This document shows positions 3 to 63,980 of a DNA stretch of 63,980 nucleotides, piece by piece (position 1 is the stretch's first letter; each line of letters starts with the position of its first letter). Both the position numbers and the translations under genes were made by a program. The stretch comes from Candidatus Schekmanbacteria bacterium (GTDB lineage Bacteria; CSSED10-310; JACPHN01). The notes below the pieces were generated by a model, which saw only the letters and a list, made by a program, of their open reading frames with translations, was not told the origin of the DNA and did no database searches. The stretch spans positions 1 through 63,980 of the forward strand of contig JACPHN010000098.1 of NCBI GenBank assembly GCA_016188575.1, read 5' to 3'.

Positions 3-290
3 GTGGAGGATTTCAAGAGGGACCTCGCGCGGTAGGTTGCCACGAGCACCCCCGCCGAAGAGCTGCTCAAGTGGATCCCGATCGAAGAGCGGCTCAAGGG
101 GCTGCGGCCGGAAGAGCGGCTCAAGGGGCTGCGGCCGGAGGATCTGCTGAAAGCGTTGCGGCCCGAAGAGCGGCTCAAGGGGCTTCCGCCGGAGGATCGG
201 CTCAAGGGGCTGCGGCCCGAAGATCTGCTGAAGGCGCTTTCTCGCGAGGAGATCCTGGCGTACCTCGAGAAGCTCGAGAAAGCCCACTGA
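3..290 (+). pseudogene. C-terminal tail of a repeat protein, interrupted by an in-frame amber codon
   Basis: One reading frame runs from the window edge to a TGA at 288-290, but a TAG lies in frame at 33-35. Before it the frame reads VEDFKRDLAR; after it VATSTPAEELLKW is followed by seven nine-residue units. No ATG or GTG occurs in frame after the TAG, so the downstream part could not start on its own. Tails of the type RPEERLKGLRPEE are familiar at the C-terminus of Rpn/PD-(D/E)XK transposase-like and related proteins (family knowledge). I infer the 3' end of such a gene, broken by a nonsense mutation; the N-terminal domain lies outside the window, so the family is not proven. Confidence 0.5.
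81..269 (+). repeat. Seven tandem 27-bp coding repeats
   Basis: Units translate as IEERLKGLR, PEERLKGLR, PEDLLKALR, PEERLKGLP, PEDRLKGLR, PEDLLKALS and REEILAYLE. The DNA period is 27 bp with few changes, so copy number can change by slippage. The predicted structure is a run of short amphipathic helices. Confidence 0.8.
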
Positions 291-800: not shown

Positions 801-3315
801 CGGCTTTCAAGTAGGAGCACGCCGCGGGACCAGCAATGGTATTGTAGCACAACCGCACGCCGTCGGTAAGGAATTGGATCCGGCCGTGCACGTCGGTCCG
901 CAGCACCGTAGGAGCTGGCCTGAGCGCAGCGACTCGTGCCAGCATCTCATCGTGCGGATGTCCCAGGCGGTTGTCCTTGCCCGCGGAGATTGCCACGATT
1001 TCGGGGGCGACGGCGCGCAAGAACGGCTCGGTAGACGACGTTCGGCTGCCATGATGCGGCGCCTTGAGCACCGTCGCCCGCAACTGGGGACCGTAGACCA
1101 GCAAGCCACCCTCGGCCCCCGCCTCGGCGTCCCCCGGAAACAGCATGCTGAAGCGCCCATAGCGGATCTTGAGGATGAGAGAGCGCTCGTTCATCCCCTG
1201 GTCGATGGCGGCATACCGAGGCGGCTGGTCCAGCACGCTGATCTCGGCCCCGACCTCCGCCAGCGCGCGCCGCAGCTTTTCCAAATCAGCGCTGTCCGCT
1301 CCTGTGCCGAGCCACGCCTGCCGCGGCCGGAGCTCCCGCGTCGCGGGCACGAGCCCCAGGAAGTGATCGCGATGGGGGTGTGACATGATGATCCCCTCGA
1401 GGCGCCGAATGCCCTCGCGAAAGAGGTACGGGACGACAATGTTACCGCCGATGTCGGGATTGCCGCTCGGCACGCCGCCGCCGTCGAGAAGCCAGCTCTC
1501 ACCGCCCGGGAACATGATGAGAATCGCGTCGCCGTTGCCGACGTCGAGCACGTCGACCCGCAGAACATCTGCCGCCGCCATGGAGAACCCTGCCGGCGCC
1601 GCTCCTCGCGCGGCCGCTGGCCGCGCCGCGCCTGGAATTGGCGGTGCGCCGCCCACGCTCGCGCACCATGAGGCGGCCAGCAGCAGCGACACCGCCCCGG
1701 CGAGCCGGGCGAGGCGTCGCGCCGGGGAACACACCAAAATGACACCCACGGCAGCACCGTACGTGGCGACGACGGCGAGATGCGGGCGGCCGACGACGAG
1801 GTAGCCGCCGATCCAGACGTCTGCGGCGTGGCCGAGGGCCAGAGAAAGGCGGGCCAGGAGCACCGCGGCGCCAACGAGGGCGCTGCCGGCCCAACCGGCG
1901 CCGGCAAGGCCGCCTGCGAGCCCAAAAACCAGTGTCGGCGCGAACAGTGGACCGAGGATGACGCCGGAGAGAACCGACCCCGGCGAAAAGCGCTGCAGGT
2001 GCAACACAAGGAAGGGCACGGTGACGGCGGACACGGCAACCTGCGTCGCCACAGTTGTGCGCAGCCACCTGCACGCCCACCCGGCGACAGGGCGCTGGTC
2101 ATGGTCTCCACTCCTCCGGCTCGCGTGCGCGTCCACCATCGGCACCACGACCAGCAGCGCCAGGGTTGCGCCATAGGTCAGTTGCGCTCCGAGGTCGAAG
2201 AGGATGCACGGGTCACAGAATAGCGCGAGCAGCAGCGCCGCCCAGAGCGACCGCGCGGCCGCCGGGCGATAGCCGCAGGCCAGCGCAATGAAGTGCAGGC
2301 AGAGACCGACGGCGGCGCGGGCAACAGACGGCTCCCAGCCGACCATCGCGGCGTATCCCATCATCGCGGCAGCCTGCACGACGCAGATGACACGGTACCG
2401 CAGGCTACCGTCGTTGAGTCGACCAAAGAGCAGCCCGAGAGCCGCACAGAGAATGCTGACGTGCTGCCCCGAGACGACCAGCAGATGGTAGGCGCCGATG
2501 CTCTTGAATACTTCCCGCTCTTCGGACTCGAGCCGATCCTTGCGGCCAAGAATCAGCGCGGCGAGCAGGTCCCGCTCGGGTCGCCGAGCTTCCTCCGGGA
2601 CTGCCGGGCACAAGGCGTCCGCGATCCGCGTCTCCACGGCGGTGAGCACTCCCTCGAGCAACGTTGCGAGCGGCCCTACTCGCCGATGCGAGCAATCGAT
2701 CGCAACGCCAGTGACCCAACGGCCGAACAGGACGGAGAAGCCGGCGCGGCTCCGCATCCACCAGACAACGGGTTCGTTTCGATAGGGCTGCCGATCGCTT
2801 ACGATTACCTGGCCGCGCACGGAGCAGCCGCTTTTGAGCGGAGTCGCGGCGCTGCCGGGAGCTCTCAGCGTGGCGGCGAGCCCGAGAATGTCGCGGCGCT
2901 CCGCGCCTGTGACGCGCACGTCCATGAGCCACTGGCCGGCGACGTAGCGAGGTCGCGCCTCAAGGCGCGCTTCAATCGGTATCGGAGTGGCGGGCAGGCG
3001 CAGCGACGGCGCTGGGGGCGGTGGCAGCAAGGCATCGAACCGCGCGGCGCCCACGAGCATTGCAAGCGCCACGAGAGCGAGACGGGCGCAACGGGCGCTC
3101 GTAGCCCAGGCGGCGCCCGAGCCGGCGCTGACCGCCGCGGCTAAGCTGATGGCGCCGCCGACCGCGGCCGCCGCGGAGCAGCCGCCGCGCGCCGCCACCA
3201 GAATCCCTCCAATGTACCCGATGCCAACGAAATCGAGTCCCGTGAGCGCGAAATGCCGCCGAAGCGGCCTGCGCGGCTCCTTCCCCGCCGGCGCCGCCCT
3301 GCCCGAGCCGTTCAT
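775..3315 (-). CDS. comEC: ComEC/Rec2 family DNA-uptake channel
   Basis: 846 residues from the ATG at 3315, which overlaps the upstream stop codon (ATGA). The open frame continues further upstream but only antisense-like Arg/Pro-rich sequence is gained. Order of parts: N-terminal membrane segments and a soluble DUF4131-type region; a polytopic Competence domain with the conserved stretch SIGAYHLLVVSGQHVSIL; and a C-terminal metallo-beta-lactamase domain (roughly residues 580-846) with SHPHRDH, PGDAEAGAEGG and APHHGSRTSS. The protein forms the inner-membrane channel for single-stranded DNA during natural transformation. The upstream HhH protein supplies the usual DNA-receptor partner. No type IV pilus genes are visible in the window. 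Confidence 0.95.
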   Translation of the reverse strand: MNGSGRAAPAGKEPRRPLRRHFALTGLDFVGIGYIGGILVAARGGCSAAAAVGGAISLAAAVSAGSGAAWATSARCARLALVALAMLVGAARFDALLPPPPAPSLRLPATPIPIEARLEARPRYVAGQWLMDVRVTGAERRDILGLAATLRAPGSAATPLKSGCSVRGQVIVSDRQPYRNEPVVWWMRSRAGFSVLFGRWVTGVAIDCSHRRVGPLATLLEGVLTAVETRIADALCPAVPEEARRPERDLLAALILGRKDRLESEEREVFKSIGAYHLLVVSGQHVSILCAALGLLFGRLNDGSLRYRVICVVQAAAMMGYAAMVGWEPSVARAAVGLCLHFIALACGYRPAAARSLWAALLLALFCDPCILFDLGAQLTYGATLALLVVVPMVDAHASRRSGDHDQRPVAGWACRWLRTTVATQVAVSAVTVPFLVLHLQRFSPGSVLSGVILGPLFAPTLVFGLAGGLAGAGWAGSALVGAAVLLARLSLALGHAADVWIGGYLVVGRPHLAVVATYGAAVGVILVCSPARRLARLAGAVSLLLAASWCASVGGAPPIPGAARPAAARGAAPAGFSMAAADVLRVDVLDVGNGDAILIMFPGGESWLLDGGGVPSGNPDIGGNIVVPYLFREGIRRLEGIIMSHPHRDHFLGLVPATRELRPRQAWLGTGADSADLEKLRRALAEVGAEISVLDQPPRYAAIDQGMNERSLILKIRYGRFSMLFPGDAEAGAEGGLLVYGPQLRATVLKAPHHGSRTSSTEPFLRAVAPEIVAISAGKDNRLGHPHDEMLARVAALRPAPTVLRTDVHGRIQFLTDGVRLCYNTIAGPAACSYLKADDASPRPS

Positions 3316-4220
3316 GGCGCGGCTCCGGACTGGTTCAGACCAAAAACGGGTGCCAGCCGCCGAGTGCGAATGGGGCCGAAGCCAGGAATGGCCGCAAGCT
3401 CGTCCATGCTGCCGGGCGCCCGCGTATGCGCTCGGTACTCGACGATGCGGCGTGCGAGCCCGGGGCCGACGCCCTCCAAAGCCGCCAAGAGCTCGGCCGG
3501 TGCCCACTCCAGAGAGATCGCAGGTCCGTTGGCGCGAAACGGGTAGAACTGCTCGACAGCGAGCACGCGGGCGCCGACGCGCTGCCACGACAAGACGCGC
3601 GGCTGCGGCGGGTCAGGTGCGGCCGCCGTAAGCACGGAGGCCGTCTTGGTGGAGACGAGAGTCGTCGCGCTGCTCGCCTTGCGCCGCAGCGGATTCGCGA
3701 GGGCGCGCGCCGCCAGCCGGGCACCCGCGGTGTCGAGCGCCAGTACCAGCAGCAGCGTCCCGATCCACAGAGACCCCCAGGGGAACGGCCGCGCCACCGC
3801 GGTGAGGTCGGCTGCACTCTCCGGCACCGCGGAAAGCACGACGCCTTTGCGATCGCGAGCGGTGTTCGCCAGGGGCGTCAAGCAGGCCCCGCCGCCCGCG
3901 GCGCGGCTCGTTTCCACAGCGCTGGAAATCTGCGCGATCACGCTTTCCATCTCCTGATGGACCGCGCCGATCGTGAGCCTCACCACCTGAAAACCCTGGT
4001 CGGCGAGGCCCCGGGCGCGCTCGCTCTCTCGCTTGTCAGCGCCCGCACAGGTGCCGGCGTCGATCAGCAGAACGAGCCGTCGCTCGACGCACGCAAAGTC
4101 GGCGAGCTCAGCTCCGATAGCGACGCGCGGGCGAAACTTCGCGTTTCGCACCTGCCGCCTCTGGATTCGGCTCCAAAGGACGCTCGCCGCATCCGCCATT
4201 TGGGGATTGTCCTCAGACAT
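3312..4220 (-). CDS. DUF559 nuclease-like domain fused to ComEA-like helix-hairpin-helix
   Basis: 302 residues. Residues about 10-96 match the DUF559/Vsr-like fold: LWSRIQRRQVRNAKFR, ADFACVERRLVLLIDAG and ERARGLADQGFQVVRL. The catalytic pattern is partly lost: in the usual LVVELDGGQH segment the Glu is Leu52 and the His is Cys58, while Asp41 and Asp54 remain. A hydrophobic helix follows at 148-163 (WGSLWIGTLLLVLALD), then a linker and a ComEA-type double HhH at 238-293 (LEGVGPGLARRIVEYR, IPGFGPIRTRRL). The start ATG has GGAG close upstream; the stop overlaps the comEC start. ComEA-like proteins bind incoming double-stranded DNA beside ComEC, so a DNA-binding role in uptake is likely; whether the nuclease domain still cuts is unknown. 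Confidence 0.8.
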   Translation of the reverse strand: MSEDNPQMADAASVLWSRIQRRQVRNAKFRPRVAIGAELADFACVERRLVLLIDAGTCAGADKRESERARGLADQGFQVVRLTIGAVHQEMESVIAQISSAVETSRAAGGGACLTPLANTARDRKGVVLSAVPESAADLTAVARPFPWGSLWIGTLLLVLALDTAGARLAARALANPLRRKASSATTLVSTKTASVLTAAAPDPPQPRVLSWQRVGARVLAVEQFYPFRANGPAISLEWAPAELLAALEGVGPGLARRIVEYRAHTRAPGSMDELAAIPGFGPIRTRRLAPVFGLNQSGAAP

Positions 4221-40860: not shown

Positions 40861-41271
40861 CTAACTGCGCCGCTCGATGCGGTCGAGGATGGCGACCAGC
40901 GCCCTGGTATGGCTGTCGCTGACAGCCATCACCTCGGCGTGTCGCTCCTCGAGCTGCTCGATGAGCAGGCGCCAGCGCTCCCTGTCCATGGCGCGATCCT
41001 CGGCGGCGACCTTGCGATCCTCGGCGGCGACCTTGCGATCCTCGGCGGCGACCTTGCGATCCTCGGCGGCGACCTTGCGTTCCTCGGCGGCTGCCCTGCT
41101 CTCCGCGATGGCAATCTTTTGCTGCTCGGCGAGTGTCTTCAGTATCGCCGCCGTCTGGGCGTCCTGTGCCGCGAATCGCTCCATCAGCGCGGCCTGTCGC
41201 TCCGCTGCGATCCGATCCTGCTCGGCCATCCGTCCAAGGATGGCCTCGATGCCGTTCCTGCTGCCGTCCAT
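40861..41271 (-). CDS. Coiled-coil protein with tandem RKVAAED repeats
   Basis: 136 residues, highly charged and almost entirely helical. In the middle are four identical heptads RKVAAED encoded by perfect 21-bp repeats, preceded by a diverged one (RAAAEE). The flanks, LMERFAAQDAQTAAILKTLA and RWRLLIEQLEERHAEVMAVS, also show heptad spacing. No signal or membrane helix. Function unknown; it lies in a patch with remnant genes. Confidence 0.6.
   Translation of the reverse strand: MDGSRNGIEAILGRMAEQDRIAAERQAALMERFAAQDAQTAAILKTLAEQQKIAIAESRAAAEERKVAAEDRKVAAEDRKVAAEDRKVAAEDRAMDRERWRLLIEQLEERHAEVMAVSDSHTRALVAILDRIERRS
40993..41076 (-). repeat. Four perfect 21-bp tandem repeats
   Basis: On the plus strand the unit is GCGATCCTCGGCGGCGACC plus TT, repeated at 40993, 41014, 41035 and 41056, with a fifth imperfect copy at 41077-41097. 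It encodes the RKVAAED heptads. Identical copies indicate recent expansion and possible length variation between strains. Confidence 0.95.
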
Positions 41272-61515: not shown

Positions 61516-61778
61516 TCGGCGCTCGCGAATGGTGACATTGTATGGGTCGTAGAGAGTAGCATTCGGCAAGCGCGGCTGCCGCCGTCGGCCGTGGCGGCCC
61601 CCCGCGCTCCTCCACAAGGCGTGTGATGCACATTGCTTGGGGATCATCCGCGCGGAGAGACGTTTCGGCACAAGCGCGATGAACCGCGTCGAAGTACGTG
61701 TGCGGGTGCGACAATGTGCGCTTCGCGTACAAGAGCGAAACTGAAACGGCTCAGTCACTGGGGATAGGAGGCACAGCC

Positions 61779-63242
61779 ATGAGCGAAAGGATACCGAGCG
61801 CGATCGGCGCCGGCGGAACCGTCACACCTTGGAGCCAGCCACCGGAATCACCGAGAGGAGCGCCGGCGGGTGCTCCGCCCGACCCGACACGCGCTGCCGG
61901 CGGAGCACCTCCACTCGCCGGCACCGAAGTCAGCGGCCAGCAGCCGCTCAACGATTCGGCCGGCATCTACGAGCAAGCGGCGACGGCCGACAAGTACGCA
62001 CTTGGCGGCAGGCTCGCCGGGAGTGTCCAGGCTGAAGGGTTCACGGCGCTCGACCGCATGCGGCAGCCGCTGGGCCAGGAGCAAGCGCCGCAACTGCCGG
62101 TGAGCATGGATGATGCGCTCGCGAACGTCAGCATCGGAGCCGTGCCGCACACACCGGACGGTGAACAGCATGGAGGGGCCGTGGCGCCGCCGCCCGCTCT
62201 GGGAGGACAACGTCTCGGCCTCGCTGAGGGGGCAGTCGTGAGGCCGCCGGTGGTTCCCGGCGGCGAGGGGGAGAAGCTCGGCCACATGCCGGGCCTCGGC
62301 GAAGAATTCGGCGCTGGGCTGCAGGTCGGCCACGGGCAAGAGCTCGGTCACCTCACTCCCGGAACGATTGGGGAGTCAGAGGGATGGTTCGGCAAGGGCG
62401 GCCCGGATCAGGCCGGCTTCGATACCGGGACGTTCCGGCCCGATCTTGGCCTGGCTTCGGGGTCGAATCCCTTTGGCGGCGGCGCGGTCGGGCCGCACGT
62501 CGTCTTTCCCGGAGACGGCGTGGCCTCGACGACTGGCGAATGTGGAGAAGGATCAATGCCGGCGACCGGGGGTGAGTCGACCGACGCGGGTGGAGGCGGC
62601 ACACCGGAAGCCGGCTCGGCAACCGGCGGAGCGGAAGGCGGCGGTAGTGGGGGCACCTCGTTCGGGTCCACGGTCGAATCGATGACGGGCGGCGGAAAAC
62701 CCACCGAGTTCGCGGACGGCGGCGGCCTGACGTGGGACGTCGGCGGCGGCGTCAGCATCGGCGGCGGCGGCGGCACCATCGCGGGCATCGCCGCCGGCGG
62801 CGGCACCGTAGCGGGCGACAACGGGGCGACTGCGGAGTCGTTCGGCGTAAAGGGTCTGCCTGGGGGCTATCAGGTCATTTTCGGCGTGAAGTGGGACGCC
62901 GAAGACGGCTGCGGCCGCCAGGGACCAGAGCTCGTGCTGCGCGGTACCTCCAAGGGTACCCCTGAACCAACCAACCCGGACGACATTCTGACGGGCCCTC
63001 ACGGCGATGATCCTGACGGGGAAGCGGGTGGCCTCGGTGGCCACGTCGGGCCGGATAACCGCGACAACCCATGGACCCCGGACGGAGACCCGAGTCCGGT
63101 CGATGGCGCCGGCTGGTCAGGCGGAACCCTACAGCCGAGCAACTACGATAACCCAATGGACAATCCCATGTTCGTCAAGTCCAAGGAGGGACCTTTCGCC
63201 AATCCCGATCCGACGGTGGGAAACAACAACCTGGGAGAGTGA
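61779..63242 (+). CDS. Large glycine-rich protein of unknown function
   Basis: 487 residues from the ATG at 61779, which has AGGAGG 8 nt upstream. No signal peptide or membrane helix. An N-terminal Pro/Ala/Gly region and a helical stretch around NDSAGIYEQAATADKYALGG are followed by long Gly-rich low complexity (for example VSIGGGGGTIAGIAAGGGTV) and an acidic Asn/Asp/Pro-rich C-terminus (NPDDILTGPHGDDPDG). No domain recognised; it may be a secreted, structural or virion-like protein. The 262 nt before it hold no supported gene. Confidence 0.7.
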   Translation: MSERIPSAIGAGGTVTPWSQPPESPRGAPAGAPPDPTRAAGGAPPLAGTEVSGQQPLNDSAGIYEQAATADKYALGGRLAGSVQAEGFTALDRMRQPLGQEQAPQLPVSMDDALANVSIGAVPHTPDGEQHGGAVAPPPALGGQRLGLAEGAVVRPPVVPGGEGEKLGHMPGLGEEFGAGLQVGHGQELGHLTPGTIGESEGWFGKGGPDQAGFDTGTFRPDLGLASGSNPFGGGAVGPHVVFPGDGVASTTGECGEGSMPATGGESTDAGGGGTPEAGSATGGAEGGGSGGTSFGSTVESMTGGGKPTEFADGGGLTWDVGGGVSIGGGGGTIAGIAAGGGTVAGDNGATAESFGVKGLPGGYQVIFGVKWDAEDGCGRQGPELVLRGTSKGTPEPTNPDDILTGPHGDDPDGEAGGLGGHVGPDNRDNPWTPDGDPSPVDGAGWSGGTLQPSNYDNPMDNPMFVKSKEGPFANPDPTVGNNNLGE

Positions 63243-63367
63243 GCAGCCAATCCGGGTACGACGCGGTCCGGAGCGGCGACACGCTGGAGACGTGTCCGGT
63301 GTCGAGCGCTGATCGCGCTGATCGATCGCGATATGGTGGCGCTTGTGTTGCAAAGATGGAGGATCGC

Positions 63368-63574
63368 GTGCAGACGGTCACCATCTCGCCGAAGTTCCAG
63401 GTCGTCGTGCCGCGTTCCGGGCGAGACAGGCTCAACCTTCGACCAAGTCTCTTGGTCCAGGTCATCCCCTACGAAGGCCGTATCGAGCTTATCCCGTTGC
63501 GGCCGGCTCACGAATTGCGCGGTGCTCTGCGCGGCATGCCGACCGATCTCGACCGCGACGAGCATCGCCTGTGA
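63368..63574 (+). CDS. AbrB/SpoVT-type antitoxin-like DNA-binding protein (VapB-like)
   Basis: 68 residues from a GTG with GGAGG 5 nt upstream; an ATG at 63356 would add four residues. The swapped-hairpin domain reads VTISPKFQVVVPRSGRDRLN followed by LRPSLLVQVIPYEGRIELIP, and the tail ELRGALRGMPTDLDRDEHRL is typical of VapB antitoxins that bind a PIN toxin. After the stop the overlapping GTG frame closes after six codons, so no VapC gene follows; the IscB element begins instead. Confidence 0.82.
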   Translation: MQTVTISPKFQVVVPRSGRDRLNLRPSLLVQVIPYEGRIELIPLRPAHELRGALRGMPTDLDRDEHRL

Positions 63575-63607
63575 GTGCCGGGCGCTCGTAGAAGCTCAAG
63601 GTAGTCA

Positions 63608-63659
63608 CCTTCTCCATCCAACCGCCTCCATCGGTATGGATGGAGCTTGGGGGAGAAGG
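63608..63659 (+). other. Two-part hairpin at the left end of the IscB element
   Basis: Outer stem CCTTCTCC (63608-63615) with GGAGAAGG (63652-63659), and inner stem CTCCATC (63626-63632) with GATGGAG (63639-63645 region) closing a short loop. No T-tract follows, so a Rho-independent terminator is unlikely. Its position 34 nt after the antitoxin gene and just before the predicted RNA fits a subterminal transposon hairpin or the element boundary. Confidence 0.5.
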
Positions 63660-63884
63660 GATGACCTGATCTTCATCGGGCTACGTCAGGCGGGTGACGA
63701 CACCCGGGGGTACGAGCGCCAGCTCCCGGCTCTGTCGCCCCGGATCATGAGCGACCAAGGAGACCACCGCGAAGGTCCGGGGTACTCAAGCCCGTCCGAC
63801 ATCGGCGAGGCGCACGTTACCGCCTCTTCGGAGGCGAGAAGCCAAGGTAACAAGGCCCCTTCGGGGGCGAGGGAGGAGACAACG
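63660..63884 (+). ncRNA. Predicted omegaRNA of IscB
   Basis: About 220 nt without a reading frame, directly upstream of iscB and full of stems: CGGGTG-ACGA-CACCCG (63691-63706); CCCCGGA (63738-63744) with TCCGGGG (63776-63782) enclosing GACC/GGTC pairs; GTTACC (63816-63821) with GGTAAC (63846-63851) enclosing CGCCTC-TTCG-GAGGCG (63821-63836); and GCCCC-TTCG-GGGGC (63855-63868). IscB proteins are guided by an RNA encoded at this place (family knowledge). The 5' boundary and guide are not fixed; about 63640-63680 is my estimate. Confidence 0.65.
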
Positions 63885-63980
63885 ATGCAGAACCGAGTGT
63901 TCGTGCTCGATGGCGAACGGCGCCCGCTCATGCCGTGCCACCCGGCGCGGGCAAGACGGCTCCTCCGCGACGGCAAGGCG
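63885..63980 (+). CDS. iscB: IscB RNA-guided nuclease, N-terminal 32 residues (runs off the window)
   Basis: The ATG at 63885 has GGGAGGAG 7 nt upstream. The visible residues MQNRVFVLDGERRPLMPCHP and ARARRLLRDGKA carry the PLMP motif that defines the start of IscB proteins, ancestors of Cas9. RuvC, HNH and bridge-helix parts lie beyond the window, so integrity of the nuclease cannot be judged. IscB genes ride on IS200/IS605-type (ISC) elements. Confidence 0.85.
   Translation, partial: MQNRVFVLDGERRPLMPCHPARARRLLRDGKA

What the first reader, a model, noticed from the sequence alone, without database searches (positions are those of the whole stretch)
63608..63980. IscB gene with an upstream structured RNA locus at the window edge
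The first 32 codons show the PLMP motif of IscB, and the 220 nt before it form at least four clean stems (two with UUCG loops), where the omegaRNA is expected. The guide segment should be readable near 63640-63680 and would reveal the insertion target of the parent element. Seen: motif and stems. Known: IscB-omegaRNA systems. Inference: functional guide.
Basis: partly seen in the sequence, partly recalled or inferred. Interest (0 to 1): 0.85.

Follow-up and report, generated by a model that had tools for sequence, protein, structure and literature searches.

The report
Contig-end IscB element with damaged guide RNA
The end of this sequence holds the first part of a known kind of jumping gene that encodes an RNA-guided DNA-cutting enzyme (IscB) and its guide RNA; it is one of more than ten such copies in this genome, its guide RNA has lost a core piece, and most sister copies sit directly in front of another gene's start codon.

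Summary
Window 63604-63980 is the left end of an IscB/HEARO (omegaRNA) element. HEARO RF02033 matches 63610-63820 (62 bits, E 3.7e-12; below the 83-bit cut-off), and the 32 codons match RRXRR/PLMP (PF14239, E 5.6e-9). The window is a whole contig that breaks inside IscB, because the element is a repeat: 15 HEARO matches and about 20 IscB pieces lie in this 9.2-Mb genome.

Two corrections. (1) The guide is not at 63640-63680; that is scaffold. The element's sharp left end is 63604, so the guide is the flank 63588-63603 (GTAGAAGCTCAAGGTA). (2) This omegaRNA has a private 39-nt deletion between 63651 and 63652 that removes the conserved guide-adaptor 3' strand and the nexus 5' strand, so a functional guide RNA is unlikely.

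Extra finding: right ends stop at GTGGA (this subfamily) or ATGA (a second subfamily), and in 9 of 11 copies this is a downstream gene's start codon. Known kind, new member; the start-codon landing deserves a follow-up.

The parts
63356..63574 (+). AbrB/MazE-type antitoxin-like gene in the left flank (host sequence, not part of the element)
   Evidence: TIGR01439 33.8 bits over cut-off 28.3; relatives G086 and G001 have a PIN-like toxin ORF directly after it (PIN assignment by eye)
63588..63603 (+). predicted 16-nt guide = host flank immediately left of the element (GTAGAAGCTCAAGGTA)
   Evidence: position relative to left end from alignment; guide is 5' of scaffold in IscB omegaRNAs (PMC9640706); exact match occurs once in the genome
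63604..63604 (+). left end of the element (GTCACC...)
   Evidence: copies become alike abruptly at GTCA and differ upstream; same GTCAAC end in Nitrospirae copies
63604..63870 (+). omegaRNA scaffold (HEARO RF02033 core 63610-63820)
   Evidence: cmscan 62 bits, E 3.7e-12; intact sister C157 92.4 bits; 3' limit approximate
63651..63652 (+). junction of a 39-nt deletion private to this copy; removes guide-adaptor 3' strand (GGTGAC), CAG linker and nexus 5' strand (GCCG)
   Evidence: alignment with C157, C131, C174, C117, C166, C232
63821..63836 (+). terminal hairpin with UUCG loop
   Evidence: sequence
63855..63868 (+). second terminal hairpin with UUCG loop
   Evidence: sequence
63885..63980 (+). 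iscB, first 32 codons (PLMP/RRXRR domain); continues past contig end
   Evidence: PF14239 E 5.6e-9; NF040563 positions 1-28; 81% identical to C174 IscB

Best explanation
This is the left end of an OMEGA (IscB/HEARO) mobile element, one of several recent copies of one subfamily in this genome, inserted 29 nt after an antitoxin-like gene. In intact copies the RNA starts in the host flank (guide, about 16 nt), continues through the HEARO scaffold and loads IscB, which cuts unoccupied copies of the insertion site next to a TAM and so favours retention or spread of the element (inferred from published IscB/TnpB work). The elements carry no transposase and are probably moved in trans by a Y1 transposase encoded elsewhere (inferred). 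The right ends show that insertion occurs immediately before GTGGA (this subfamily) or ATGA (second subfamily), usually a gene's start codon. The window copy is probably a decaying one: its RNA lacks conserved scaffold pieces through a 39-nt deletion.
For: HEARO match E 3.7e-12 directly upstream of an RRXRR ORF. 15 HEARO matches in the genome and none in 14 control genomes. Seven subfamily copies with unrelated left flanks and a common start at GTCA. Full-length sister IscB with HNH. Sharp right ends in two subfamilies, with ORFs starting exactly there. Y1 transposases elsewhere in the genome. 39-nt deletion, with the score 92 bits in sister C157 and 62 bits here.
Against: The window's own IscB is only 32 codons, so its integrity is untested. 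The deletion could be an assembly or population variant at a repeat. After the deletion CCUUCUCC can pair with GGAGAAGG (centroid), so a rewired hairpin might keep some function. Movement in trans and the cutting role were not tested.
Confidence: 0.87

Rival explanations
1. The window copy is a fully functional IscB-omegaRNA unit; the deletion only rewires a peripheral hairpin, because CCUUCUCC/GGAGAAGG and GUCA/UGAC re-form the guide-adaptor hairpin.
For: The window RNA can still form a CCUUCUCC/GGAGAAGG hairpin; the HEARO match is still full length (positions 1-211).
Against: The nexus 5' strand GCCG and the conserved GACCAG linker are gone. Published mutations in omegaRNA pseudoknots abolish activity (PMC9581776, PMC9640706), and the IscB structure shows direct contacts to the nexus. 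None of the other six subfamily copies carries this deletion.
Confidence: 0.12
2. The 39-nt deletion is an assembly artefact at a collapsed repeat and the real copy is intact.
For: The contig ends about 330 nt later in the same repeat; five contigs end inside this element.
Against: The junction lies within continuous contig sequence; the flanking direct repeat is only 5 nt (GGAGA), shorter than usual assembly words; other copies were assembled through this stretch without it.
Confidence: 0.12
3. Only a stray RRXRR/HNH fragment with no omegaRNA, the stems being GC-rich chance.
For: Fold z-score is only -2.4; below the Rfam gathering score.
Against: Covariance match at E 3.7e-12; six sister copies of the same sequence, two of them above the cut-off.
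Confidence: 0.02

Closest known systems
HEARO RNA (RF02033) plus IscB, the OMEGA system (NF040563; OgeuIscB structure 7xht, PMC9640706; HEARO nucleases PMC9755519)
   Same: HEARO RNA directly upstream of iscB, guide side at the 5' end, PLMP start; in sister C174 RRXRR, HNH and the RuvC-like motifs; multi-copy element without its own transposase
   Different: This copy is cut off at codon 32 and its scaffold lacks 39 nt; this subfamily's right-end motif GTGGA does not look like the NNRR TAM given for OgeuIscB (GTGG would be NNRR only at its 3rd-4th base: G, G, so it is compatible but longer and more fixed)
IsrB OMEGA elements (DtIsrB, NTGA TAM; PMC9581776)
   Same: Guide plus omegaRNA upstream of a PLMP/RuvC protein; the NTGA TAM agrees with the ATGA right-end motif of the second subfamily
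   Different: IsrB lacks HNH; the sister IscBs here have HNH

Membership tests
IscB (OMEGA nuclease) | PLMP/RRXRR N-terminal domain | tested here: met
   PF14239 36.5 bits against cut-off 25 on the 32 codons
IscB (OMEGA nuclease) | RuvC and HNH nuclease domains | tested here: inconclusive
   Beyond the contig end in this copy; met in sister C174 (NF040563 372.8 bits, HNH PF01844)
IscB (OMEGA nuclease) | Curated NF040563 cut-off (175 bits) | tested here: inconclusive
   37.2 bits because only 28 of 314 positions are present
HEARO / omegaRNA (RF02033) | Covariance match upstream of iscB | tested here: met
   62 bits, E 3.7e-12, full model length, but below the gathering score 83; two sister copies of the subfamily are above the cut-off
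HEARO / omegaRNA (RF02033) | Intact guide-adaptor hairpin and nexus stem | tested here: not met
   39-nt deletion removes GGTGAC, CAG and GCCG; so it is filed as a degraded copy by descent, not as a working omegaRNA
IscB mobile element | Sharp ends with different flanks in several copies | tested here: met
   Left ends, right ends
IscB (OMEGA nuclease) | Guide-directed DNA cleavage next to a TAM | not testable with these tools
   needs biochemistry

The most novel reading that the evidence does not exclude
Two co-resident IscB subfamilies have different right-end motifs, GTGGA and ATGA, and both land on translation start codons, so the element slides between a gene's ribosome-binding site and its start codon without breaking the reading frame. 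The guides are then gene-specific 5'-UTR sequences, which could allow IscB, or copies that no longer cut, to regulate or protect those genes rather than only drive transposition.
Probability: 0.25. Interest if true: 0.6.

Novelty: new member of a known kind. Interest (0 to 1): 0.33.

Why it matters
As a single locus it adds one more, probably decaying, IscB element. Its genome matters more: about twenty IscB pieces in two subfamilies with readable ends give predicted guides and TAMs (GTGGA, ATGA) for untested enzymes. They also give a natural data set for asking why these elements land on start codons, and whether decayed copies can be served by intact ones in trans.

Tried and rejected
Empty site: antitoxin relatives in 98 genomes are at most 49% identical, so the empty site could not be read. 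Finding this copy's right end: right-end fragments on C241, C181 and C177 have other genes downstream, and no toxin of the expected family was found in the genome with one distant query, so no partner was assigned. Guide off-targets: three 2-mismatch sites, about what chance gives for 18 Mb of strands (my estimate about 5); none is directly followed by GTGGA. The primary papers by Weinberg 2009, Altae-Tran 2021 and Kapitonov 2016 are not held, so whether start-codon insertion was already described could not be checked; from memory, ATGA/GTGA integration sites were noted for HEARO. I considered that the empty Rfam gathering scan of the window refuted the finding; rejected after the E-value scan and the sister copies.

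Full report
What is there. The window is the whole of contig C201 of a 9.2-Mb, 275-contig genome and ends inside an ORF. The ORF starts at 63885 after a GGAGGAGA ribosome-binding site and its 32 codons match PF14239 RRXRR above the curated cut-off and the first 28 positions of NF040563 IscB. Upstream, 63610-63820 matches the HEARO covariance model over its full length at 62 bits, E 3.7e-12. This is below the gathering score of 83, so the default scan of the window is empty.

Sister copies. The same model finds 15 matches in the genome and none in 14 control genomes, and 20 IscB segments are found. By sequence they fall into two subfamilies: A (GTCACCTTCTCC; C201, C157, C131, C174, C117, C166, C232) and B (GTCAACTACCCC; C5 twice, C90, C161, C69, C172, C170, C162, C214). 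Copies of A are mostly 84-98% alike, and five contigs (C201, C157, C131, C166, C232) end inside the element, so the break at 63980 is most simply an assembly break at a repeat. C174 encodes an uninterrupted 438-aa IscB with NF040563 372.8 bits, PF14239 and HNH. It aligns to OgeuIscB and other solved IscBs, including the KLDPG, VEVE, HNH and H-x-x-DA stretches where the catalytic residues are expected. Among 20 relatives no other genome has an IscB above the cut-off, which suggests horizontal arrival.

Left end and guide. All copies become alike abruptly at GTCA and have unrelated sequence upstream. In the window this is 63604. The guide of IscB omegaRNAs is the segment 5' of the scaffold (PMC9640706), so the predicted guide is 63588-63603, GTAGAAGCTCAAGGTA. 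Same-type left ends (GTCAAC) occur in Nitrospirae copies.

Damage. Against C157 the window lacks 39 nt between 63651 and 63652, flanked by a 5-nt direct repeat GGAGA. All six other A copies keep this stretch. It holds GGTGAC, which pairs with the 5' GTCACC of the guide-adaptor hairpin, the CAG linker, and GCCG, which pairs with CGGC (63803-63806 in the window) as the nexus stem (HEARO alignment of C157). C157 scores 92.4 bits and the window 62. C131 also scores only 67.1 because its first bases are altered, and C117 67.4, so a low score by itself is not proof of loss. Fold z-scores are -2.4 for the window and -4.0 for C157. Pseudoknot mutations abolish activity in IsrB and IscB. A functional omegaRNA here is therefore unlikely, though a rewired hairpin CCUUCUCC/GGAGAAGG is possible. 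C117 is also decayed: its iscB departs from the family after about 73 codons.

Right ends and start codons. Right ends stop at GATCCG|GTGGA in A (one copy GCGGA) and just before ATGA in B. In 9 of 11 copies a long ORF starts exactly at this GTG or ATG. Seven of these have Pfam domains: Cas6b (from residue 7), Uma2, histidine kinase, rhomboid, GCS2, M50 and M64. The exceptions are C241 (29-codon ORF) and C210 (GCG in place of GTG). In a Nitrospirae genome and a close relative the right end is also ATGA, and three of six copies start a recognisable gene there: nucleotidyltransferase, ThiF, glycosyl transferase family 3. ATGA occurs 388 times on the two strands of the window. If at most about 15 of these are true starts (my estimate, not computed), six of six B copies by chance is below 1e-7. 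NTGA is a known TAM of IsrB (PMC9581776), so I read GTGGA and ATGA as TAMs (inference). For C174, left flank ...TGAGGCAACC joined to GTGGAAGAG gives a normal ribosome-binding site and start of cas6b, which supports both ends.

Surroundings. The element sits 29 nt after an AbrB/MazE-type antitoxin-like gene (63356-63574). In two relatives a toxin-like ORF overlaps the antitoxin stop and starts MNLVD; in the window the expected overlapping frame closes after six codons. A toxin gene starting at this copy's unseen right end is possible but unproven; one distant query found no such toxin in the genome. The elements carry no transposase; eight Y1 transposase matches lie elsewhere, so movement in trans is an inference.

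Verdict. Observation confirmed, identity right, guide position wrong, guide function unlikely. New member of a known kind. What is shown: the HEARO match, IscB start, repeat nature, left end, deletion, right-end motifs in sister copies. What is inferred: guide use, TAM role, loss of function, mobilisation in trans.

Noticed in passing
L010 (G000:C174:26000-34000), element between 3685 and about 5393: An IscB element sits between cas4 (after cas1, cas2) and cas6b of a CRISPR-cas operon, exactly before the cas6b GTG start: an RNA-guided nuclease element lodged inside a CRISPR operon.
   Followed up: partly
L057 (G000:C162), IscB near 2246-3682: This IscB carries an extra stretch of about 35 residues after RuvC-I (around FRVLSTEKGQGQEEDPRLSSSSLSTRDSALST), looking like a small in-frame insertion.
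   Followed up: no
L051 (G000:C5:77500-82500) and L013 (G000:C210): IscB copies with large internal deletions that keep the right end (L051 both ends), resembling short non-autonomous derivatives.
   Followed up: no
window 28-257: 27-nt tandem repeat coding for a 9-residue unit (like EERLKGLRP), six or more units.
   Followed up: no
window 40972-41139: 21-nt tandem repeat, about six units, partly identical.
   Followed up: no
window 61698-63242: 514-aa Gly-rich ORF without any Pfam match, just upstream of the antitoxin-like gene.
   Followed up: no
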